Shown here in pieces: positions 1-11,144 of a DNA stretch of 11,693 nt; within the stretch, counting starts at the first letter, position 1, and every line of letters starts with the position of its first letter. Below the pieces are notes generated by a model. The model did no database searches and had not been told where the DNA came from. It saw only the letters and a program-made list of their open reading frames with translations. Source of the stretch: DASVDK01 sp036562265 [NCBI: Thermodesulfobacteriota bacterium] (GTDB lineage: Bacteria; DASVDK01); assembly GCA_036562265.1 (NCBI GenBank), contig DATCKS010000366.1, positions 1 to 11,693 on the forward strand. The letters run 5' to 3'. The position numbers and the translations under genes are program-made.

Positions 1-164
1 GCTCCTACCTCGGCGCCCTCCTCGGTGGGGTGATCCTCGGCCTCGCCGAGTCGTTCACCGGGCTCTACGTGGGGACGCAGGCGGCGGAGGCCGTGGCCTA
101 CCTCCTCCTGGTCGCGGTCCTCCTCGTCCGGCCGCAGGGGCTCCTCGGGGAGCGGCGGCAGTGA
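1..164 (+). CDS. livH: LivH-type branched-chain amino acid ABC transporter permease, C-terminal fragment
   Basis: Only the last 53 residues are present; the first complete codon is at position 3 and the stop is TGA at 162-164. The visible protein has a Gly/Leu-rich membrane segment with GALLGGVILGLAES, a second hydrophobic stretch (AYLLLVAVLLVRP) and the ending PQGLLGERRQ. Such an RPQGLLGE-like tail is typical of the LivH permease of HAAT-family importers. LivH and LivM form the membrane channel that LivG and LivF power. The TGA overlaps the GTG start of the next gene (GTGA), so the two are probably translationally coupled. The family is known; the exact substrate cannot be read from this fragment. 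Confidence 0.85.
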   Translation, partial: SYLGALLGGVILGLAESFTGLYVGTQAAEAVAYLLLVAVLLVRPQGLLGERRQ

Positions 165-1090
165 CGGGCCGCGCGGCCGTCGCGACGGTCGTCGTGCTGG
201 CGGCCCTCGTCGCCTTCGGCGCGACGACCGAGAACACGTACTATCTCTCCGTCGGGTACTCGATCTTCCTCTACGTCGCCCTCGCCTCGTCCTGGAACGT
301 CATGTCGGGCTTCACCGGCTACACGTCCTTCGGCCACGTCGCCTTCTACGGCGTCGGCGCCTACACGGCCGCCATCCTCATGTTCGACCATTTCTGGAGC
401 TGGCCGCCGGCCTTCCTCGCCGGCGGCCTCGCGGCGGCGCTGCTCGCGGCGGCCATCGGGTGGCCCTGCCTGCGCCTCAAGGGGCCGTACTTCGCGATCT
501 CCATGCTCGGGATCGCGGAGGTCCTGCGCATCGTGGGCCTCACCTGGGAGAGCGTCACGTACGGCGGGACCGGGATCCCGCTCCTCTCCGCGCTCTCGCT
601 GCGAGGCTTCTACTTCCTCATGGGCGGCATCGCGCTGGCGGCGGTGGGCGTGGCGCTGGCCGTCGCGCGCACCAGGTTCGGCCTGCGCCTCCTCGCGCTC
701 CGGGAGGACGAGATCGGCGCCGAGACGATGGGCATCAACACGACGGCCCACAAGCTCGCGGCCTTCGTGCTGTCGGCCGTCATCCCGGGGATCGCCGGCG
801 GGATCGACGCCTCGCGCGTCGGCTTCATCGAGCCGATCAGCACGTTCAACGTCTTCATCACGATCCAGATGATCATCATGACCATGTTCGGCGGGCGGGC
901 CACGGTGCTCGGCCCGGTCATCGGCGCGGTGGTGCTGAGCGTCGTGCGCGAGGCGCTCTGGGCCCGGTACCCGTACGACTACCAGGCGCTCTTCGGGGTG
1001 CTGATCATCGTCCTGGTCCTCTTCATGCCGGAGGGCGTCATGGGGGTCGTGCAGGCGCGCCGCCGGGCGGCCAAGGTGGCGGCGCCGTGA
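161..1090 (+). CDS. livM: LivM-type branched-chain amino acid ABC transporter permease
   Basis: This 309-residue inner-membrane permease is the second channel subunit of a HAAT-type ABC importer. The sequence is almost wholly hydrophobic, with roughly eight to ten membrane segments. It has the characteristic GYTSFGHVAFYGVGAYTAA stretch after the first helices, matching the family pattern of a Ser/Gly/His/Ala-rich loop (residues about 47-65). The EAA-like cytoplasmic loop that contacts the ATPases is seen at about residues 178-200 (LALREDEIGAETMGIN, then HKLAAFVLSA). The length is normal for LivM. The GTG start at 161 overlaps the livH stop and the stop overlaps the livG start, showing a tightly coupled operon. 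The substrate may be branched-chain amino acids, but HAAT systems also carry amides, urea and carboxylates. Confidence 0.93.
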   Translation: MTGRAAVATVVVLAALVAFGATTENTYYLSVGYSIFLYVALASSWNVMSGFTGYTSFGHVAFYGVGAYTAAILMFDHFWSWPPAFLAGGLAAALLAAAIGWPCLRLKGPYFAISMLGIAEVLRIVGLTWESVTYGGTGIPLLSALSLRGFYFLMGGIALAAVGVALAVARTRFGLRLLALREDEIGAETMGINTTAHKLAAFVLSAVIPGIAGGIDASRVGFIEPISTFNVFITIQMIIMTMFGGRATVLGPVIGAVVLSVVREALWARYPYDYQALFGVLIIVLVLFMPEGVMGVVQARRRAAKVAAP

Positions 1091-1786
1091 GCGGGCCGAT
1101 CCTCGAGGTCCGCGACGTCCGCAAGCGCTTCGGCGGCCTCGAGGCGCTGGCGGGGCCCTCCTTCGACGTGCCGGAGGGGGCGATCGTGGGGCTCATCGGT
1201 CCGAACGGGTCGGGCAAGAGCACGCTCTTCGACTGCATCACCGGCACCCAGCGCCTCGACGGCGGCGAGGTGCGCTTCGCGGGCCGCCGGATCTCGGGCC
1301 TCGCCCCGTACCAGATCGCCCGCCGCGGCGTCGGCCGGACGTTCCAGCTTGGTCGCCTCTTCGGCCGGCTCTCCGTACTCGAGAACCTGCTCGCGGTCCG
1401 CGGCCCGCTCGAGGGCCGGCGGGCCGAGGCGCGGGCGCACGAGCTGATCGAGCTGGTCGGCCTCACGCGGGTCACGCACGAGCTGGCCGCGAACCTCTCC
1501 TACGGTCAGTCGAAGCTGCTCGAGTTCATCCGGGCGCTCATGCTCGACCCGATCCTCGTCCTGCTCGACGAGCCGGCCGCCGGCGTGAACCCGACGCTCC
1601 TCGAGCGGATCGTCGGCTACGTCCGCGGGCTGCGCGACCGCGGCGTGACCGTCCTCGTCGTCGAGCACAACATGGGGTTCATCATGGGGCTCTGCGACCA
1701 GGTCGTCGTGCTCGACCACGGCGAGAAGATCGCCGAAGGGCCGCCGCAGGAGATCCGGGAGGACGAGCGGGTGATCGAGGCGTACT

Positions 1787-1797
<11 letters not shown>
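1087..1797 (+). CDS. livG: LivG-type ABC transporter ATP-binding protein
   Basis: This 236-residue cytoplasmic ATPase is one of the two paired with LivH/LivM. Walker A is GPNGSGKST (residues 38-46, Lys44), the ABC signature is LSYGQ (137-141), Walker B is LVLLDEP with Asp161-Glu162, and the switch His is His194 in VVEHNMGF. LSYGQ followed by a DEPAAGVNP block is typical of LivG rather than LivF. The frame stays open far upstream, but GTG at 1087 is chosen because it overlaps the livM stop (GTGA), begins right before the conserved ILEVRDVRKRFGG strand and gives a family-sized protein. The end overlaps the livF start by 11 bases. Confidence 0.93.
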
Positions 1798-2506
<709 letters not shown>

Positions 2507-2525
2507 GCCACGGAGAAAGGACAGC

Positions 2526-3599
2526 ATGGCGACACATCGGATTGGCGTGATCCCGGGTGACGGGGTCGGCACGGAGGTGGTGGCGGAGGGCCTCAAGGCC
2601 CTCCAGGCGGTCTCGGACGTCTCGGGGGGGAGCCTTCGCTTCGAGATCGAGACGTTCGACTGGGGCAGCGAGCGGTACCTCAAGACCGGCCGCATGATGC
2701 CCGAGAACGGACTCGAGACGCTCGAGAAGTTCGACGCGGTCTACCTCGGCGCCGTCGGCGACCCGCGCATCCCGGACCACATCACGCTCCACAACCTGCT
2801 CCTACCGATCAAGATGGGCTTCGACCTCTACGTCGGGCTCAGGCCGGTCAAGCTCTACCCGGGCGTCGACTCGGCGCTGGCCAACAAGGCGCCCGGCTCG
2901 ATCGACATCGTCCTCATCCGCGAGAACACGCAGGGCGAGTACGCCGACATCGGCGGCATCGTCGGCCAGGGCGCCTCGACGGTCGCCCTCCAGGGGGCGC
3001 TCTTCACCTACGAGGGGTGCGAGCGGATCATCCGATACGCCTTCGAGTACGCGCGCGCCCACGCCCGCCGGAAGGTTACGTCCATCACCAAGTCGAACGC
3101 CCAGAAGTTCGGCATGGTCTTCTGGGACCGGGTCTTCAAGGAGGTCGCGGCGCGGTTCCCCGACATCCAGACCGAGTCGAAGCTCATCGACGCCGCCGCG
3201 ATGGACGTGGTCCGCAAGCCGGAGGCCTACGACGTCGTCGTGGCCTCGAACCTCTTCGCCGACATCATGAGCGACCTCGTCGCGGCCGTCACGGGGGGCA
3301 TGGGGCTGGCGCCCGGCGGGTCGTTCCGCCCGGACCGCAAGAAGCCGGGGCTCTTCGACCCGGTCCACGGCTCCGCGTTCGACATCATGGGGAAGGGGAT
3401 CGCCAACCCGATCGCCGCCATCCTCACCGCCGCCCTGATGCTCGACTACCTCGGCGAAAAGGCCGCGGCCGACCGGATCCGCCGCGCCGTGGAGGGCAAC
3501 CTGGCCGACCGGGAGGTCCGGACGGCCGACCTCGGGGGCCGTTCGCGCACGGCCGAGGTGGGCGACGACGTGGCTCGCCGCATCCGGGCGGCCGGCTGA
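2526..3599 (+). CDS. D-malate/tartrate-type beta-decarboxylating dehydrogenase (DmlA/TtuC subfamily)
   Basis: This 357-residue cytoplasmic enzyme belongs to the isocitrate/isopropylmalate dehydrogenase fold and should oxidise and decarboxylate a 2-hydroxy dicarboxylate with NAD+ and a divalent metal. The start IGVIPGDGVG (residues 5-14) is the family nucleotide/substrate strand. AVGDPRIPDHITL, VRPVKLYPG-like and RENTQGEY blocks match D-malate/tartrate dehydrogenases better than LeuB or Icd. The catalytic Lys is Lys189 in ITKSNAQKFGM, and the metal-binding Asp block is ASNLFADIMSDL. The NAD-binding motif is HGSAFDI (281-287), with Phe285 where most relatives have Pro; Asp286 argues for NAD over NADP. 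The ATG is preceded by a good Shine-Dalgarno (GGAGAAAGGA). It follows livF by 19 bases, so it is probably co-transcribed with the transporter. Isopropylmalate dehydrogenase is a less likely alternative. Confidence 0.82.
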   Translation: MATHRIGVIPGDGVGTEVVAEGLKALQAVSDVSGGSLRFEIETFDWGSERYLKTGRMMPENGLETLEKFDAVYLGAVGDPRIPDHITLHNLLLPIKMGFDLYVGLRPVKLYPGVDSALANKAPGSIDIVLIRENTQGEYADIGGIVGQGASTVALQGALFTYEGCERIIRYAFEYARAHARRKVTSITKSNAQKFGMVFWDRVFKEVAARFPDIQTESKLIDAAAMDVVRKPEAYDVVVASNLFADIMSDLVAAVTGGMGLAPGGSFRPDRKKPGLFDPVHGSAFDIMGKGIANPIAAILTAALMLDYLGEKAAADRIRRAVEGNLADREVRTADLGGRSRTAEVGDDVARRIRAAG

Positions 3600-3721: not shown

Positions 3722-3750
3722 TTGACACCCCTCACGTAACTGCCTAGACT
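3722..3750 (+). promoter_or_regulatory. Sigma70-type promoter of the formate dehydrogenase operon
   Basis: A perfect -35 box TTGACA (3722-3727) is separated by exactly 17 bases from TAGACT (3745-3750), which matches the -10 consensus at four of six positions. Transcription would start near 3757 and leave a leader of about 115 bases before the ATG at 3872. The stretch is visibly less GC-rich than the genes around it, as promoters often are. Just upstream is the short palindrome TGCCAGGCA (3696-3704), and CTGCCT overlaps the -10 (3740-3745), forming an inverted match to AGGCAG (3700-3705); this could be an operator, but the copies are short and may be chance. Confidence 0.65.
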
Positions 3751-3871
3751 CGCTCCCAACAAGGCAAGGAACCGTGTTCTTCCCGCGCGTTCGTCTCATG
3801 GGCGACGCGGCAAGCTCCCGGTTCATGGCCCGCCTCTCCCTGGCCCAACAGCGAAGGAGGCCTCGAGCCCG

Positions 3872-6800
3872 ATGCAGATCTCACGTCGAGGGTTCCTCAA
3901 GTTCTCCGGTGCGACCACTGCGGGCGTCGCGGTCGGCAGCCTCGCGAGCCTCGGCGTCGACCTTTCGCCGGTGGTGGCCTACGCGCGCGACCTGCGCATC
4001 AAGAACGCGAAGGTTGTTCCGAGCGTCTGCCCTTACTGCGCGGTCGGCTGCGGGCAGCTCGTGTACGTCGAGAAGGTCGACGGCGAGGACCGGATCATCA
4101 ACATCGAGGGCGATCCCGACTGCCCCCACACGCTCGGCGCGCTCTGCCCGAAGGGCTCGGCGACCATCCAGCTCTCCATCAACGAGCGGCGCCCGACGAA
4201 GTGTCTCTACCGGGCGCCCGGTTCCGACCGGTGGGAGGAGAAGCCGCTCGACTGGATGATGGACCAGGTGGCGGAGCGCCTGAAGAAGACCCGCGACCAG
4301 TACTTCATCGAGACCGAGAAGGGGATCACGGTGAACCGCCTCGACGCGGTCGCCAACCTCGGCTCCGCCTGCTGCGACAACGAGGAGTGCTACATCCAGA
4401 GCAAGCTCCTCAGAACGCTGGGCATCGTCTACCACGAACATCAAGCACGCGTCTGACACTCCGCTACGGTCCCGGCTCTGGGATCGTCGTTTGGTCGGGG
4501 TGCGATGACGACGAATCTGATCGACATCCAGAACGCGGATGTCATCATGATCACGTCGAACATGGCGGAGAACCACCCCGTCGGCTTCCAGTGGGTGGTG
4601 CGCGCCAAGGAGCGCGGCGCCAAGGTCATCCACGTCGATCCCCGCTTCACCCGCACGTCGGCGCTCGCCGACATCCACGTGCCGCTCCGCTCGGGCACGA
4701 ACATCGCGTTCTTCGGCGGCCTGATGGCCTACGCGATGAACAACGACAAGATCCACACCGAGTACGTGGCCCACTACACCAATGCCAGCATGCTGATCGA
4801 CGACGGCTTCGGGTTCGACGACGGCATGTTCACCGGCTACGACGGCGACGCCAAGCGGTACGACCGGACGACCTGGAGGTACCAGACGAACCCGGACGGC
4901 TCGCCGAAGCGGGACACGACGCTCAGGCACCCGCGCACGGTGTACCAGCTCATGAAGCGGCACTACAGCCGGTACACGCCGGAGATGGTCGAGCGGGTCT
5001 GCGGCATCCCGAAGGCGAAGTTCCTCCAGGTGGCCGAGCTCTTCTGCTCCACGGGCGGGCCGAAGAAGACGAAGACCGGCACCGTCGTGTACGCCCTGAA
5101 CCTGACGCAGCACACCAACGGCGTCCAGAACATCCGGGCGCTCGCGATGCTGCAGCTCCTCCTCGGCAACATCGGCCTGCCGGGCGGCGGCGTCGTGGCG
5201 CTGCGCGGCCATGCCAACGTGCAGGGGGCGACCGACCTGGCGGTCCTCTACCAGGACCTGCCGGGCTACATGGCCATGCCGCTGCGCGACGTCCACCCGG
5301 ACCTCGCCACGTACCTCGAGAAGGAGACCCCGAAGGGCGGCTACTGGATCAACAAGCCGGCCTTCTTCATCTCGCTCCTCAAGGCCTGGTACGGCGACGC
5401 CGCGACGAAGGCGAACGACTTCGGCTACGACTTCATCCCGAAGCGGGAGAAGGCCGACGCGTACTCGCAGCAGCACATCTTCGTCGACATGTACGAGGGG
5501 AAGATCAAGGGCTTCTTCGCGATCGGCCAGAACCCGGCGGTCGGCAACCCGAACGCGACGCTGGCCCGCGCCGCCCTCGCCAAGCTCGACTGGCTGGTCG
5601 TCAAGGACATCTTCCACACCGAGACGGCCGAGTTCTGGCGGGCGCCGGGGGTCGATCCGAAGAGCATCAACACCGAGGTCTTCTTCTTCCCGGCCGCGCC
5701 GGCCGCCGAGAAGAACGGCACGCTCACGAACACGATGCGGCTCATCCAGTGGCACAACATGGCCGTCGAGCCGCCCGGCGACGTGCGCAGCGACCTCCAC
5801 TTCTGGTATCACCTCGGCAAGCGGATCAAGGCGCTCTACGCCTCGAGCACGGCCAGGCGCGACCAGGGGATCAAGGCGCTCGTCTGGGACTACCCGGAGG
5901 AGGGCAAGCACGCCGAACCCTCGGCGGCGCACGTCCTGCGCGAGATGAACGGCTACGTCTGGGCCCCCGACTGGAAGGATCGGGTCCAGCTCAAGTCGTT
6001 CGGCGAGTGCAAGGCCGACGGCACCACCGCGGCCGGCTGCTGGATCTACACGGGGGTCTTCCCGGACGAGAAGACCAACCGGGCCGCCTCGCGCCAGATC
6101 GACAAGAGCGGCAAGGACTACCTGCAGCACGGATGGGGCTTCGCCTGGCCGGCGAACCGCCGCATCATGTACAACCGCGCCTCGGCCGACCTGGACGGCA
6201 AGCCCTGGATCGAGTCGAAGGCGCTCATCCAGTGGGATCCCGACGCGGACAACGGGCCGGGCGCGCCGAAGGGGAAGTGGGTCGGCCGCGACGTGCCCGA
6301 CTACGGCCCGACGCTCGCCCCGCGCGCCCCGAAGAACGCCGCGGGGCCGCTCAAGGGGGTCGGCGGCAACGACCCGTTCATCATGCGGCCCGACGGCGTG
6401 GCCGGGCTCTTCGCGCCGCTCGTCGACGGGCCGCTCCCGGAGCACTACGAGCCGGTCGAGGCGCCGACGAGGAACCTGCTGTCGAAGCAGCAGATCAATC
6501 CCGTCGCCAAGATCTGGCAGGTCGCCGACGGGCGCAACGAGATCGCGGAGGTCGGGTCGAGCAAGTACCCGTACGTCCTCACGACCTACCGCCTCACGGA
6601 GCACCACCTCTCGGGCGTCATGAGCCGGCAGCTCCCCTGGCTCGCGGAGATGTTCAAGAGCCACTTCGCCGAGATCAGCGAGGAGCTGGCGAAGGAGAAG
6701 GGCATCAGGAACGGCGACCTGGTGGAGGTCTCCACGCCGCGCGGCTCGATCAAGCTGCGCGCCATGGTGACCAAGCGGCTCAGGCCGTTCACGATCGACG

Positions 6801-6973
6801 GCAAGACGGTCCACCAGATCGGCATCCCCTGGCACTGGGGGTACGTCGGCATCGCCAAGGGTGACGTCACGAACGACCTCGTGGCGAGCGTCGGCGACCC
6901 GAACGTCTACATCCAGGAGAGCAAGGCGCTTCTCTGCAACGTCGAGAAGGCCGCGCAGCAGGGGGTGGCGTAG
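3872..6973 (+). CDS. fdnG: Selenocysteine-containing, Tat-exported formate dehydrogenase catalytic (alpha) subunit, UGA read through as Sec195
   Basis: One 1033-residue selenoprotein, close to E. coli FdnG in length. It oxidises formate to CO2 at a Mo/W-bis-pterin centre outside the cytoplasmic membrane. It starts with a twin-arginine signal (SRRGFLK, residues 4-10), a hydrophobic run and a likely cut after AYA (36-38). A [4Fe-4S] cluster is bound by Cys53, Cys56, Cys60 and Cys92, followed by Lys94. The frame meets TGA at 4454-4456 in QARV-U-HSATVPAL and continues unchanged in SSFGRGAMT and later FdnG-like blocks (AENHPVGFQWV, VDPRFTRTSA, TNASMLIDDGFGFDDGMFTGYD, YRLTEHHLSG, GIPWHWGY). Sec195-His196 match the FdnG active-site pair. 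Gene finders would report two pieces, 3872-4456 and 4505-6973. AAGGAGG at 3854-3860 serves as ribosome site, 11 bases from the ATG. The beta-subunit gene follows after two bases. A nitrate reductase is unlikely given the Sec-His pair and neighbours. Confidence 0.95.
4454..4486 (+). promoter_or_regulatory. Selenocysteine UGA codon with bacterial SECIS-like hairpin
   Basis: The UGA at 4454-4456 is followed, after 10 bases, by a 7-bp stem CGGUCCC (4467-4473) with GGGAUCG (4480-4486), including one G-U pair. The 6-base loop is GGCUCU (4474-4479). In bacterial SECIS elements, SelB binds a small hairpin starting about 11 bases after the UGA; E. coli fdhF and fdnG have a GGUCU-type apical loop, which GGCUCU resembles. 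The element lies inside the coding region and is translated as HSATVPALGSS. The pairing is seen directly; SelB binding is inferred. Confidence 0.85.
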
Positions 6974-6975
6974 CC

Positions 6976-7764
6976 ATGGCCGCGACGATGACCCAGAAGG
7001 TCATGTACACCGACACCACGATCTGCACCGGGTGCCGGGCGTGCATGGTCGCCTGCAAGCAGTGGAACCAGCTCCCCTACGAGGAGCCGGAGTGGACGGG
7101 CGGCTACGGCAACCGTTCGCACTTCAGCGACAAGGCGTGGCGCTTCGTCCGGTTCATCGAGGTGGACGACCCGCGGCCGAGCCACAAGGGCGAGGTCCAG
7201 TGGCTCATGATGTCGGACGTCTGCAAGCACTGCCAGCAGGCCGGCTGCCTCGAGGCCTGCCCGACCGGCGCGATCCACCGGACCGCGTGGGGGACGGTCG
7301 ACATCGACCAGGGGATCTGCAACGGCTGTCGCGACTGCGTGGCGTCCTGCCCGTTCGGGGTGATCGCGTTCAACGCCGACACGGGGCGCGTCAACAAGTG
7401 CACCTTCTGCTCGGACCGCGTGCCGGCGGGCATGCCGACGGCCTGCGCCAAGACCTGCCCGACCAGCTCGATCCGCTTCGGCGACAAGGAGCCGATGCTC
7501 GAGATGGCACGCGCGCGGGTGAAGGAGCTCAAGGCACAGGGCTTCGAGCGCGCGAACCTCTACGGGGACTCGGACATCCTCGGCGGGCTCAACGCGTTCT
7601 ACGTCCTGGCCGACAGCCCCTCGGTCTACGGGCTGCCCGAGAGGCCGGAACTGCCGCAGCGCAACGTCAACCTCGACTCGGCGCTCGCCATCGCGTCGTC
7701 GGTCGTCATCGGGCTGGCCGCCCTGGTGAGCTTCCGCGACCAGGGCGCCGGCCGCCAGGGCTAA
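6976..7764 (+). CDS. fdnH: Formate dehydrogenase iron-sulfur (beta) subunit, four [4Fe-4S] clusters
   Basis: A 262-residue ferredoxin-type electron-transfer subunit. It carries sixteen cysteines in four groups: Cys17/20/23/27, Cys83/86/91/95, Cys115/118/121/125 and Cys142/145/157/161, enough for four [4Fe-4S] clusters wired between the formate site and the membrane. No signal peptide is present; such subunits are carried out with the Tat-exported alpha subunit. Near the C-terminus LDSALAIASSVVIGLAALVSF (about residues 234-254) looks like one membrane helix, as in E. coli FdnH, followed by a short charged tail. The ATG lies two bases after the alpha-subunit stop and the next gene begins 11 bases after this one, so all three are one operon. 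Confidence 0.93.
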   Translation: MAATMTQKVMYTDTTICTGCRACMVACKQWNQLPYEEPEWTGGYGNRSHFSDKAWRFVRFIEVDDPRPSHKGEVQWLMMSDVCKHCQQAGCLEACPTGAIHRTAWGTVDIDQGICNGCRDCVASCPFGVIAFNADTGRVNKCTFCSDRVPAGMPTACAKTCPTSSIRFGDKEPMLEMARARVKELKAQGFERANLYGDSDILGGLNAFYVLADSPSVYGLPERPELPQRNVNLDSALAIASSVVIGLAALVSFRDQGAGRQG

Positions 7765-7775
7765 CGGGGGAGCGC

Positions 7776-8666
7776 ATGGGCGTCGTCACGGCGAACATCC
7801 AGGACCCCCACTGGGGGATGTACATCGTGTGGTACTTCTTCCTCGGCGGCATCGCCGGGGGGGCGTACTTCACGGCGGCCATCGCGGACTACTTCGGCGG
7901 CCCGCGCGAGCGGCAGATGGCGAAGATCGGCTACTACATCGCCTGGCCGCTGACCGTCATCTGCGGCATCCTCCTCATCCTCGACCTCGGCACCCCGAGT
8001 CGTTTCCTCAACATGCTGCGCGAGTTCAAGTGGCAGTCGCCCATGTCGGTGGGGGCCTGGGGGCTCGCGGTCTTCGGGGCCTTCGCGACCGTATCGGCCG
8101 TCCTCGCGTACTTCGAGCGAGGGCCGATGCCGGTCCTGTCGCTTTCGGAGGCCGACCGGCTCCGCTACCGGCGGCTCGTCGGGCTCGTCGGGACGCTCGC
8201 CGGCTTCTTCCTCGCGAGCTACACCGGCGTGCTCCTCGGCTCGACGGCCATCCCGATGTGGACCGAGAGCCGGCTCATGGGGGCGCTCTTCCTCGCCTCC
8301 GCCGCCTCGACCGGCGTCGCGTCGATCGCCCTCGTCGCGTGGCTGCGAGGGCTCGACCTGGGGGAGACCTGGAACCGCATCCACCGGTTCGACCGGTTCG
8401 CCATCGTCTGGGAGGCGGTCCTCCTGGCCGCCCTCCTGGTAATGCTCGGCGGGGCGGCCGAGCCGATCGTCTCGGGCCGGTACGCGCTCCTCTTCTGGGT
8501 CGGCCTGGTGGCGATCGGGCTCGTCGCGCCCTTCGTCCTGCAACTGCGCACCGGCCACCACTCGGGGCGGCCGACCTTCGCGCTCGCCCTGCCGGCCCTC
8601 CTGGTGCTGGTCGGCGGCTTCGTCCTCCGGTACGTGGTCATCATGAGCGGGCCCTATCACGGGTAG
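7776..8666 (+). CDS. NrfD/PsrC-family quinone-interacting membrane subunit of the formate dehydrogenase
   Basis: A 296-residue integral membrane protein with about eight hydrophobic helices, for example WGMYIVWYFFLGGIAGGAYF, then IGYYIAWPLTVICGILLILDLG and the last ALPALLVLVGGFVLRYVVIMS. The GGIAGGAYF stretch in helix 1 and DLGTPSRFLNMLREFKWQSPMS after helix 2 are NrfD/PsrC-family hallmarks. The family anchors periplasmic molybdoenzymes and exchanges electrons with quinone without heme. There are no paired histidines as expected for FdnI-type cytochrome b. The ATG at 7776 is chosen because GGGGGAG lies just upstream and it gives a normal NrfD N-terminus; the frame is open further upstream but only as a shadow of the beta gene. 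It is the last gene before a strong terminator. Confidence 0.88.
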   Translation: MGVVTANIQDPHWGMYIVWYFFLGGIAGGAYFTAAIADYFGGPRERQMAKIGYYIAWPLTVICGILLILDLGTPSRFLNMLREFKWQSPMSVGAWGLAVFGAFATVSAVLAYFERGPMPVLSLSEADRLRYRRLVGLVGTLAGFFLASYTGVLLGSTAIPMWTESRLMGALFLASAASTGVASIALVAWLRGLDLGETWNRIHRFDRFAIVWEAVLLAALLVMLGGAAEPIVSGRYALLFWVGLVAIGLVAPFVLQLRTGHHSGRPTFALALPALLVLVGGFVLRYVVIMSGPYHG

Positions 8667-8741: not shown

Positions 8742-10172
8742 ATGCCGGACACGCGCGCCCGCCTGCGCCAGCTCCCGTCGGTCACCGAGGTCCTCAAGAG
8801 CCCCGGCGTGGCGGCGCTCCTGCGCCGCCGCCCGCGCCCGCTCGTCGTCGAGGCGATCCGGGAGGTCCTCGACGAGGCGCGCCGCCGGCTCCTCGCGGGG
8901 GAGGCCTTCGAGCCCGACGGCTTCCTCGCCGGCCTGCCGGCCGCCGTCGACCGCGCGCTCGACGCCCGCACCCGGCCGAACCTGCGCCGGCTCCTCAACG
9001 CCACCGGCGTCGTCATCCACACGAACCTCGGCCGGTCGGTGCTGGCGGCCGAGGCGGTGGAGGCGATGGAGGCGGTCGCGGCCGGCTACTCGACGCTCGA
9101 GCTGGACCTCGCGTCGGGCGAGCGCGGCTCTCGCCACGCCCACGTCGAGCGGCTCCTCACGGCGCTCACCGGCGCCGAAGCCGCCTGCGTCGTGAACAAC
9201 AACGCCGCGGCCACCATGATCGCCCTCAACACCCTCGCGGCCGGTCGCGAGGGGATCGTCTCGCGGGGCGAGCTGGTGGAGATCGGCGGCGCCTACCGCA
9301 TGCCGGACGTCATGGCGGCCTCGGGCGTCGCGCTCCGCGAGGTGGGGACCACCAACAAGACGTACCTGCACGACTACGAGGCGGCCATCACCGAGCGGAC
9401 CGGCGTCCTCGTCCGCGTCCACACCAGCAACTTCCGCATCGTCGGCTTCACGCACGCGGTCGACGGCGCCGAGCTGGCGGCCCTCGCCCACCGGCGCGGC
9501 CTCGCGGCCCTGGAGGACCTGGGCAGCGGGTGCCTGGTCGACCTCGGCCGCATCGGCCTGCCGCGCGAGCCGACGGTCCAGGAGGCGGTCGCCACCGGCA
9601 TGGACCTGGTGACCTTCAGCGGCGACAAGCTCCTCGGCGGCCCGCAGGCCGGCATCGTCGTGGGGCGGGCCGCGGCGGTCGCGGCCGTCAAGAAGAACCC
9701 CCTCATGCGGGCCCTGCGGCCGGACAAGCTCACCCTGGCGGCGCTCGAGGCGACGCTCCGGCTCTACGAGGCAGGTACGGACACGGCGCTCCGGCGCATC
9801 CCGACCCTCCGGATGCTCGCCATGAGCGAGGAGGAACTCCGGGCGCGCGCGGCGCGGCTCAAGGCGCACATCCGGCGACTCGCCCCGCAGGCCGCGCTCT
9901 CGCTCAGGGCCGACGTCTCCCGGGTCGGGGGTGGGGCGCTGCCGCTCGCCGAGCCGCCGACGACCGTCGTCGCGGTGGCGCCGCGCGTGGCCGACCCGGG
10001 CCGGGCCGGCGCGGCGCTCGTCGCGCTCGAGGCGGCCCTCCGCTCGGAGGAGCCTGCCGTCATCGCACGCCTCAAGGACGACGCGCTCCTGCTCGACCCG
10101 AGGACGCTCCTCGACGACGAGATCGCGCCCTGCGCGAGACGGGTGGCGGCGGCGCTCCAGCGCGTGGGCTGA
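8742..10172 (+). CDS. selA: L-seryl-tRNA(Sec) selenium transferase
   Basis: A 476-residue PLP enzyme that converts Ser-tRNA(Sec) to Sec-tRNA(Sec) using selenophosphate, in the cytoplasm; the E. coli protein has 463 residues and forms a decamer. The N-terminal segment RLRQLPSVTEVLKSP is the SelA signature start. NATGVVIHTNLGRS, NNNAAATMIALNTLA, RGELVEIGGAYRMPDVM, EVGTTNKTYLHDYE and HTSNFRIVGFT follow in family order. The PLP lysine is Lys296 in TFSGDKLLGGPQAGI. The ATG at 8742 fits both the N-terminal motif and the adjacent -10 box. It lies just downstream of the gene for a selenoprotein, its likely main client, but beyond a terminator, so it is expressed separately. selB, often next to selA, is absent here. 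Confidence 0.96.
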   Translation: MPDTRARLRQLPSVTEVLKSPGVAALLRRRPRPLVVEAIREVLDEARRRLLAGEAFEPDGFLAGLPAAVDRALDARTRPNLRRLLNATGVVIHTNLGRSVLAAEAVEAMEAVAAGYSTLELDLASGERGSRHAHVERLLTALTGAEAACVVNNNAAATMIALNTLAAGREGIVSRGELVEIGGAYRMPDVMAASGVALREVGTTNKTYLHDYEAAITERTGVLVRVHTSNFRIVGFTHAVDGAELAALAHRRGLAALEDLGSGCLVDLGRIGLPREPTVQEAVATGMDLVTFSGDKLLGGPQAGIVVGRAAAVAAVKKNPLMRALRPDKLTLAALEATLRLYEAGTDTALRRIPTLRMLAMSEEELRARAARLKAHIRRLAPQAALSLRADVSRVGGGALPLAEPPTTVVAVAPRVADPGRAGAALVALEAALRSEEPAVIARLKDDALLLDPRTLLDDEIAPCARRVAAALQRVG

Positions 10173-10445
10173 GCGCCTCGACGTCCGGGCGAGCACGCCG
10201 CGGCCGGCGCGCCGCGATCGTCCCGACCACAGGGCGCCGGCCGGCACCGCTCGGGCAGCCGGCTCGTTCGCGCCATACGGCCCGCTTCCGCCCGGCCGTA
10301 CTCGATCCCGCGTCTCGGGCAGCGGTAGCCCCGGCCGGCTCGCGGCCGCACGGCCGGAGACCGGACGGTCGAGCCGGGGCGGACGCCGGCCGGTCGCGCG
10401 GCGTCGGGGGGTTACGGCGGCACGGTCGTCGCTTCGCCCCCGCGC
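10173..10445 (+). other. GC-rich intergenic gap between selA and radC
   Basis: I see no supported gene in these 273 bases: open frames crossing it are unbroken only because of high GC, and their translations are Arg/Pro/Gly-rich without known motifs. It holds several short GC palindromes, for example CGCGGC/GCCGCG (10199-10204 with 10211-10216), and a 10-base direct repeat CTCGGGCAGC (10250-10259 and 10314-10323). The first hairpin could be a weak selA terminator, but no T-tract follows. No tRNA-Sec-like T arm or UCA anticodon loop was found on either strand. Confidence 0.5.
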
Positions 10446-11144
10446 ATGATCGCAGAGGGAGGCCCGGGAGGGACGGGGAACGAGGACCGCCCGCGCGAGC
10501 GGCTCCTCGCCGTGGGGCCCGAGGGGCTCGCGTCGGTCGAGCTTCTGGCGCTGGTGCTCGGCTCCGGAGGCCCGGGGCGGCCGGCGGCCACGCTGGCGGC
10601 GCGCCTGCTCGCCCGGTTCGGCTCGATACGCGGGCTTGCCGCGCGCAGCCCCAGGGAACTGGCGACGGAGCCTGGCGTGGGGCCGGCGCGGGCCGCGGCG
10701 GTGACCGCCGCGCTCGAACTCGGCCGGCGGCTCGCCGAGACGCGGCTCCTCCCCGGCACGAGGCTCGGCGGCGCGGCCGACGTGTTCCGGCACTATCACC
10801 TCCGCCTGCGGGACCTCAAGCGCGAGCGGTTCCTCGCGCTCCTCCTCGACGGGAAGCACCGGCTCGCCGGCGAGATCCTCGTGTCTGAGGGGACGCTCAC
10901 GGCGAGCCTGGTCCATCCGCGGGAGGCGTTCGCGCCGGCGGTCAGGGAGTCGGCGGCCGCGCTGGTGTTCGTCCACAACCACCCCTCGGGCGATCCGACC
11001 CCCTCGCGGGAGGACGTCGACCTCACCCGCCGCCTCGTCGCGGTCGGCGACCTCCTCGGCATCCGGGTCCTCGACCACGTGATCGTGGGTGACGCCCGTT
11101 ACCACTCGTTCGCCGACGCCGGGCGGCTCGCGACGCGGGACTGA
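10446..11144 (+). CDS. radC: RadC family JAB/MPN-domain protein
   Basis: A 232-residue protein of the RadC (UPF0758) family. The N-terminal DRPRERLLAVGPEGLASVELL block is the family's opening, followed by a helix-hairpin-helix-like segment (ELATEPGVGPARAAAVTAAL). The C-terminal JAB/MPN domain has an intact JAMM metal site: the Glu in GEILVSEGTL, then His177, His179, Pro180, Ser187 and Asp190 in HNHPSGDPTPSREDVD. Despite its name RadC is not a proven DNA-repair enzyme; its biochemical role is unsettled. The length is typical. ATG 10446 has no clear Shine-Dalgarno; the frame is open upstream but the family N-terminus starts just after this Met. It stands alone between two non-coding gaps. Confidence 0.93.
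   Translation: MIAEGGPGGTGNEDRPRERLLAVGPEGLASVELLALVLGSGGPGRPAATLAARLLARFGSIRGLAARSPRELATEPGVGPARAAAVTAALELGRRLAETRLLPGTRLGGAADVFRHYHLRLRDLKRERFLALLLDGKHRLAGEILVSEGTLTASLVHPREAFAPAVRESAAALVFVHNHPSGDPTPSREDVDLTRRLVAVGDLLGIRVLDHVIVGDARYHSFADAGRLATRD

What the first reader, a model, noticed from the sequence alone, without database searches (positions are those of the whole stretch)
3872..6973. One formate dehydrogenase selenoprotein that automatic annotation would split into two genes
The frame before TGA 4454-4456 and the frame after it are the same, and both halves match contiguous FdnG-like sequence around QARV-Sec-HSAT. The 7-bp hairpin with a GGCUCU loop placed 10 bases after the UGA fits a bacterial SECIS. 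Splitting would give a 194-residue 'truncated' protein and an 822-residue protein lacking its Tat signal, [4Fe-4S] cysteines and active-site residue.
Basis: partly seen in the sequence, partly recalled or inferred. Interest (0 to 1): 0.65.

Follow-up and report, generated by a model that had tools for sequence, protein, structure and literature searches.

The report
Selenocysteine formate dehydrogenase read through UGA
This is one ordinary bacterial formate-oxidising enzyme whose gene uses a stop codon to insert selenocysteine, so simple gene finders cut it in two; it belongs to a well-known family.

Summary
Window 3872-6973 is one 1,033-residue frame with a single in-frame TGA at 4454-4456; a mechanical ORF list splits it into 194 + 822 residues. 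Read through, it is a formate dehydrogenase-N alpha subunit (TIGR01553, 1205 bits, cut-off 814). TGA is at that site in 36 of the 37 genome loci that cover it, of 40 found, and in 18 of the 30 best matches from the phylum of a Rokubacteria genome; the other 12 carry Cys codons. The window groups with the 18 TGA genes, support 98/98. The hairpin meets published bacterial SECIS rules, but alone it is only modestly unlikely: 4-5% of synonymous recodings do as well. selA lies 75 bases after the operon. Three related genomes each hold selA, selB, selD and tRNA-Sec; the window's own genome is not held. The operon resembles the tentatively named FqoABC (NrfD-type anchor), not FdnGHI. Ordinary finding; one small oddity is that the SECIS stem pairs one base out of register compared with the 51 distinct Sec relatives compared.

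The parts
3872..6973 (+). Formate dehydrogenase alpha subunit, selenoprotein, 1033 aa with Sec195; Tat signal 2-22, cysteines 53, 56, 60, 92 (presumed [4Fe-4S] ligands), Sec195-His196, Arg445
   Evidence: translation; TIGR01553 1205 bits and Pfam domains including TAT_signal; solved relatives; residue positions, their roles recalled from E. coli FDH-H
4454..4456 (+). In-frame UGA read as selenocysteine
   Evidence: TGA in 36 of 37 covering genome loci and in 18 of 30 best phylum matches
4466..4487 (+). bSECIS hairpin: 8-pair stem 4466-4473/4480-4487, loop GGCUCU 4474-4479
   Evidence: fold; Rfam SECIS_3 at 4451-4509, below gathering score; published bSECIS rules; pairing counts
3854..3860 (+). 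Shine-Dalgarno-like AAGGAGG, 11 bases before the ATG at 3872
   Evidence: read from sequence
6976..7764 (+). Iron-sulfur subunit (FdhB/FqoB-like), 262 aa, 16 Cys, one C-terminal hydrophobic helix 235-253
   Evidence: PF13247 87 bits; TIGR01582 194 bits, below cut-off 334.7
7776..8666 (+). NrfD-like membrane subunit (FqoC-like), 296 aa from ATG 7776, about 8 hydrophobic stretches
   Evidence: PF03916 124 bits; hydropathy. Start chosen here by eye; the searches used 7764-8666, whose first codon is not a start codon
8742..10172 (+). selA, L-seryl-tRNA(Sec) selenium transferase, 476 aa
   Evidence: TIGR00474 578 bits, cut-off 268

Best explanation
One gene for the catalytic subunit of a periplasmic, quinone-linked formate dehydrogenase. 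UGA 4454-4456 is decoded as selenocysteine by SelB and tRNA-Sec at a bSECIS hairpin that starts about 10 bases downstream. The Sec195 selenium then ligates the Mo/W of the active site, formate is oxidised to CO2, and electrons pass over the [4Fe-4S] cluster of the alpha subunit and the clusters of the beta subunit (16 cysteines, so presumably four) to an NrfD-type quinone-reducing membrane subunit. selA beside the operon makes Sec-tRNA. Shown here: frame, family, conserved UGA, hairpin, gene order, SelA. Inferred from family knowledge: Sec insertion itself, metal ligation, export, formate as substrate, quinone as acceptor.
For: Single frame through one TGA. TIGR01553 above cut-off. Solved FDHs named selenocysteine-containing align over about residues 1-1027; in the printed alignments the residue opposite position 195 is an unnamed X in 1h0h and a C in 9qm0. 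TGA in 36 of 37 covering loci, 25 of them actinobacterial and the rest from several other phyla, and in 18 of 30 best phylum matches. Equal conservation on both sides of the TGA. Window in the Sec clade, 98/98. Hairpin fits the bSECIS rules printed in PMC13188914: loop 3-9, stem 4-16, G in the first two loop positions, 16-37 bases between UGA and loop (here 17), energy limit -7.5 (here -13.7 for a 30-base stretch). selA next door. tRNA-Sec, selB, selD and selA in 3 of 3 related genomes.
Against: No genome is held for the window, so selB, selD and tRNA-Sec are not shown in this organism; no tRNA-Sec lies in the window. The hairpin alone is a 4-5% event among synonymous recodings, and two of three Sec relatives tested the same way reach only 17%, no better than the best Cys gene. 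The Rfam hit is below its gathering score. Of the 18 phylum genomes with a TGA gene among the 30 best matches, 3 (G064, G078, G079) gave no selB at E<=1e-60 and no SelA; they are many-contig assemblies, and the two genes are neighbours in the three relatives checked, so one missing contig would explain both. Because 9 of the 12 genomes behind the Cys genes also hold selB over the cut-off, and several of those also hold a TGA gene, co-occurrence does not discriminate. The tree program warns that the place of long rows, the window among them, is unsure.
Confidence: 0.97

Rival explanations
1. The TGA is a sequencing or assembly error for TGC/TGT (Cys).
For: 12 of the 30 best phylum matches carry Cys codons at this site, and a single-base change separates the two.
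Against: The window falls with 18 TGA genes and apart from the 12 Cys genes (98/98 and 100/99); it has the HQAR context of the former (17 of 18; one HQSR) where all 12 of the latter have NSAR; a SECIS-like hairpin follows; selA adjoins.
Confidence: 0.01
2. A pseudogene, or two separately translated proteins split at the TGA.
For: A mechanical ORF list gives two ORFs of 194 and 822 aa.
Against: Identity is undiminished after the TGA; the ATG at 4505 is the internal Met of the FGRGAMT stretch, which solved relatives share, and has no clear Shine-Dalgarno sequence before it; the second ORF would lack Tat signal, Fe4S4 domain and active-site residue; the TGA position is conserved across phyla.
Confidence: 0.01
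3. UGA is read as another residue (for example Trp, as in a recoded genetic code).
For: None found.
Against: Only this one internal TGA in the gene, at the Sec/Cys site of relatives; selA in the window; the other genes named here are open under the standard code.
Confidence: 0.005

Closest known systems
FDH alpha subunits with solved structures (1kqf, nitrate-inducible FDH, recalled as E. coli FdnG; entries named selenocysteine-containing such as 6sdr, 8cm4, 9qm0)
   Same: Alignment over about residues 1-1027
   Different: Sits here in an operon with an NrfD-type anchor; identity to them was not computed
Rokubacteria (Candidatus Rokuibacteriota) Sec-FDH, L001-L003
   Same: 66-67% or 69-70% identity, TGA, VPAL context, followed by FdhB- and NrfD-like genes
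   Different: Their selA lies with selC and selB, not beside the FDH; SECIS stem in the family register
FqoABC, formate:quinone oxidoreductase tentatively assigned in PMC8076601 (passages read)
   Same: FdnGH-like AB plus an NrfD-like C with eight predicted helices
   Different: The passages list Actinobacteria, Chlorobi, Crenarchaeota, Chloroflexi and Deltaproteobacteria, not this phylum; 'selenocysteine' occurs 0 times in the main text
Rfam SECIS_3 (RF01989)
   Same: Match at the same place
   Different: 32.3 bits, below the gathering score of 63

Membership tests
FDH-N alpha subunit (TIGR01553) | Score over the curated cut-off, full length | tested here: met
   1205 bits vs 814.2, residues 2-1026 on profile 1-1009
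FDH-N alpha subunit (TIGR01553) | Tat signal, [4Fe-4S] domain, molybdopterin domains | tested here: met
   PF10518, PF04879, PF00384, PF01568 all over cut-off
Bacterial selenoprotein | In-frame UGA aligned with Sec/Cys of homologues | tested here: met
Bacterial selenoprotein | bSECIS hairpin by the rules quoted in PMC13188914 | tested here: met
   loop 4 or 6, stem 9 or 8, G in first two loop positions, 18 or 17 bases from UGA, -13.7 kcal/mol for a 30-base stretch
Bacterial selenoprotein | Organism has selA, selB, selD, tRNA-Sec | tested here: inconclusive
   selA in window; own genome not held; all four in 3 of 3 relatives
Rfam SECIS_3 | Gathering score 63 | tested here: not met
   32.3 bits
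FdnGHI (FDH-N) complex | Beta subunit over TIGR01582 cut-off | tested here: not met
   194.2 vs 334.7 bits
FdnGHI (FDH-N) complex | Cytochrome b gamma subunit (recalled as defining) | tested here: not met
   The third gene is NrfD-like, PF03916 124 bits
FqoABC | FdnGH-like AB with NrfD-like eight-helix C | tested here: met
   helices by simple hydropathy, ten peaks merging into eight stretches, the first one barely over the limit; placement in the FqoC dendrogram groups not tested
FqoABC | Formate:quinone activity | not testable with these tools
   the source itself calls the complex uncharacterized

The most novel reading that the evidence does not exclude
In this lineage the FDH SECIS has drifted in register while staying functional. 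In the 33 Sec genes compared from other lineages the apical loop is R-G-U, taken from a Ser or Gly codon. In the Rokubacteria-type genes that residue is Ala, so the loop reads G-C-U from the Ala codon, after an A from the Pro wobble base in 17 of 18 distinct genes; in the window the stem has also slipped one base, forming 8 of 8 shifted pairs and only 3 of 7 family-register pairs. If real, it means the protein sequence and the SelB-binding loop have been traded against each other, and SelB of this lineage tolerates or prefers the shifted loop.
Probability: 0.3. Interest if true: 0.3.

Novelty: new member of a known kind. Interest (0 to 1): 0.15.

Why it matters
[quoted passage not shown] FdhA is described as the most widely distributed bacterial selenoprotein family (PMC13188914, passages read). 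The only locally new points are a selenocysteine FDH in an FqoABC-type operon with selA at its end, and the one-base slip in the SECIS stem.

Tried and rejected
Sequencing error, pseudogene and alternative code were considered and rejected (see rivals). tRNA-Sec in the window: none by ARAGORN or Rfam (E up to 10). The co-occurrence of selB with TGA genes across 95 phylum genomes was tried as a test (83 of 95 over cut-off) and does not discriminate. A hairpin energy comparison of Sec and Cys genes (mean -12.2 in 55 TGA rows, -8.9 in 13 Cys rows) points the right way, but the rows are related and include the window and three duplicates (L001=L059, L002=L064, L003=L060), so it was not used as a test. 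The synonymous null was run on 16 of the 68 rows, all with the window gene's codon usage: window 4%; Sec rows L071 0.5%, L057 and L059 17%; the 12 Cys rows 17-99%. It is thus weak for most single genes. The two stem registers were chosen after looking at the sequences, so that comparison is descriptive. One search's motif missed most loci (it demanded a context that actinobacterial genes lack) and one search dropped minus-strand loci; replace them. L027, L028 and L030 do not reach the site and were left out of codon counts. The tree used 41 of the 67 loci with a codon call, plus the window; left out were the three duplicates and 23 actinobacterial loci. radC next to selA was looked for in six selA loci held with 1.5-kb flanks and not found. 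One query (the second ABC-transporter gene) had guessed coordinates and is not used. The window's phylum is not settled: FdhA is nearest to Rokubacteria (66-67%, the other loci 48% or less), SelA is at best 57% and RadC at best 56% over near-full-length matches in that phylum; SelA and RadC were not compared with whole genomes of other phyla.

Literature: 'Rokubacteria' with 'selenoprotein', and with 'formate dehydrogenase' and 'selenocysteine', each gave the same one paper, on phylum KSB1 (PMC9012183), listing seen only. 'Methylomirabilota' with 'selenoprotein' gave two: PMC9890850, listing only, and the review PMC13188914, of which passages and section 5 were read. That Rokubacteria are placed in Methylomirabilota by some taxonomies is recalled. 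Searches are listings; from them only PMC1088965 and PMC8076601 were opened, passages only.

Full report
Observation. The window holds two ORFs in one frame, 3872-4456 (194 aa) and 4505-6973 (822 aa). Read through TGA 4454-4456, they make one protein of 1033 residues with residue 195 recoded, in the context HEHQARV-U-HSATVPALG.

Identity of the protein. It scores 1205 bits against TIGR01553, formate dehydrogenase-N alpha (cut-off 814), over its whole length. It has a Tat signal, the molybdopterin Fe4S4 domain, the molybdopterin oxidoreductase domain and the dinucleotide-binding domain, each over Pfam's cut-off. By the table it aligns over about residues 1-1027 with solved FDHs, several of them named selenocysteine-containing; the two alignments printed (both cut short) show X (1h0h) and C (9qm0) opposite residue 195. 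Cys 53, 56, 60 and 92, Sec195-His196 and Arg445 match the cluster ligands and the Sec-His-Arg set of E. coli FDH-H; that correspondence is recalled, not computed. NCBIfam also lists NF041513 (1224 bits, cut-off 1400), not reached.

The TGA is a conserved codon. Of 40 loci found in genome contigs, 37 cover the site: 36 have TGA and one (L039, Dehalococcoidia) has TGT. Of the 36, 25 are actinobacterial and 3 Rokubacteria; the rest are labelled Acidobacteria, Myxococcota, Spirochaetes, Deltaproteobacteria, Eisenbacteria or just bacterium. In the phylum of G001, the genome behind L001, 61 of 95 genomes have a match at E<=1e-100; of the 30 best matches, which alone were fetched, 18 have TGA and 12 have Cys codons. 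On a tree of 42 proteins the window joins the 18 TGA genes (98/98) and the 12 Cys genes form their own clade (100/99); the window's branch is long, 0.39, and the program warns that such placements are unsure. Identity to the 18 is as high after the TGA as before it. This speaks strongly against a sequencing error, a pseudogene and two separate genes.

The hairpin. The stem runs 4466-4473 with 4480-4487, loop GGCUCU at 4474-4479; the lowest-energy fold adds a G-U pair and leaves GCUC. It meets the rules for bacterial SECIS printed in PMC13188914 section 5. Rfam finds SECIS_3 at 4451-4509 with E 4.6e-4 but below the gathering score. By itself it is not strong evidence: 11 of 200 dinucleotide shuffles fold as well, and 4.0% (energy) or 5.3% (stem length) of 5000 synonymous recodings do as well; two of three Sec relatives tested so reach only 17%, like the best of 12 Cys genes.

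A detail of the hairpin. Counting the U of UGA as base 1, the Sec relatives pair 15-21 with 27-33. Of 54 Sec rows (51 distinct), every one forms 6 or 7 of these 7 pairs, while the window forms 3. The window forms 8 of 8 pairs one base out of register (13-20 with 27-34), where no Sec relative exceeds 6; the 13 Cys rows form 4 to 6 of the 7. Loop sequences differ by lineage: the 33 other Sec loci have R-G-U from a Ser or Gly codon; the 18 distinct Rokubacteria-phylum Sec genes have G-C-U from an Ala codon, with A before it in 17 and C in one; the window has G-G-C-U. The review says most bSECIS loops have G followed by G or U, which the Rokubacteria loops do not. That the Ala codon forced the shift is an inference; 12 of the 12 phylum Cys genes share the Ala. 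The window is a single sequence without close kin here, the registers were chosen after looking, and the slip could be drift.

Machinery. selA lies at 8742-10172, 75 bases after the NrfD-like gene (TIGR00474, 578 bits, cut-off 268). The window's genome is not held. In the three genomes behind L001-L003, tRNA-Sec (3 of 3 over cut-off; found also by ARAGORN with a TCA anticodon), selB (3 of 3), selD (3 of 3, each with one internal TGA) and selA (3 of 3) are all present, with selC, selA and selB on one contig in each. Across 95 genomes of the phylum, 83 have selB over the cut-off and 83 a SelA match at E<=1e-60. Of the 18 genomes with a TGA gene among the best 30 matches, 15 have selB over the cut-off; G064, G078 and G079 have neither selB nor SelA at the thresholds used. 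Of the 12 genomes behind the Cys genes, 9 have selB over the cut-off.

The operon. After the alpha subunit come a 16-cysteine iron-sulfur protein with a C-terminal hydrophobic helix (TIGR01582 194 bits, below cut-off 334.7) and an NrfD-like protein with about eight hydrophobic stretches. This is not FdnGHI, whose third subunit is a cytochrome b (recalled). It fits FqoABC, which PMC8076601 (passages read) tentatively assigned as a formate:quinone oxidoreductase and called uncharacterized. The Rokubacteria loci L001-L003 have FdhB- and NrfD-like genes directly after the alpha gene too.

Mechanism. Most likely: co-translational Sec insertion at the UGA by SelB at the hairpin, Tat export, formate oxidation at a Mo or W ligated by Sec, and electron flow over iron-sulfur clusters to quinone at the NrfD subunit. 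Only the sequence features are shown here; each biochemical step is inferred from the family.

Verdict. The case is ordinary: FdhA is described as the most widely distributed bacterial selenoprotein family, a Methylomirabilota assembly has been predicted to hold 63 selenoproteins, with a caveat about co-assembled strains (PMC13188914), and splitting at Sec codons is a documented general fault (PMC1088965).

Noticed in passing
window 8742-11144: selA is followed by radC rather than selB; in the three nearest genomes selA stands between selC and selB. A selA placed at the end of an FDH operon is a different arrangement.
   Followed up: partly
window 4466-4487: SECIS stem pairs one base out of register compared with the 51 distinct Sec relatives examined, and the loop carries GCU from an Ala codon where other lineages have RGU.
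   Followed up: partly
window 3722-3750: TTGACA-17-TAGACT (10 of 12) in the gap before the FDH gene; shuffles give 0.0 on average. Possible promoter of the operon.
   Followed up: no
L087, L088, L089 (base 1531 of each): selD in the three related genomes is itself a TGA-containing gene with an inverted repeat soon after the TGA; the predicted fold is that hairpin in L087 and L088, another in L089.
   Followed up: partly
G079 contig C103, 3749-6814 and 9449-12553: Two FDH alpha copies stand about 2.6 kb apart on one contig: one with TGA (L066) and one without an internal stop, presumably Cys (its codon was not read). The genome gave no selA or selB at the thresholds used.
   Followed up: no
window 161-3599: Branched-chain amino-acid-type ABC transporter genes (named from reading the translations, not searched) followed by a tartrate dehydrogenase/isopropylmalate dehydrogenase-like gene 2526-3599 (TIGR02089 452 bits, just under its cut-off 470).
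   Followed up: no
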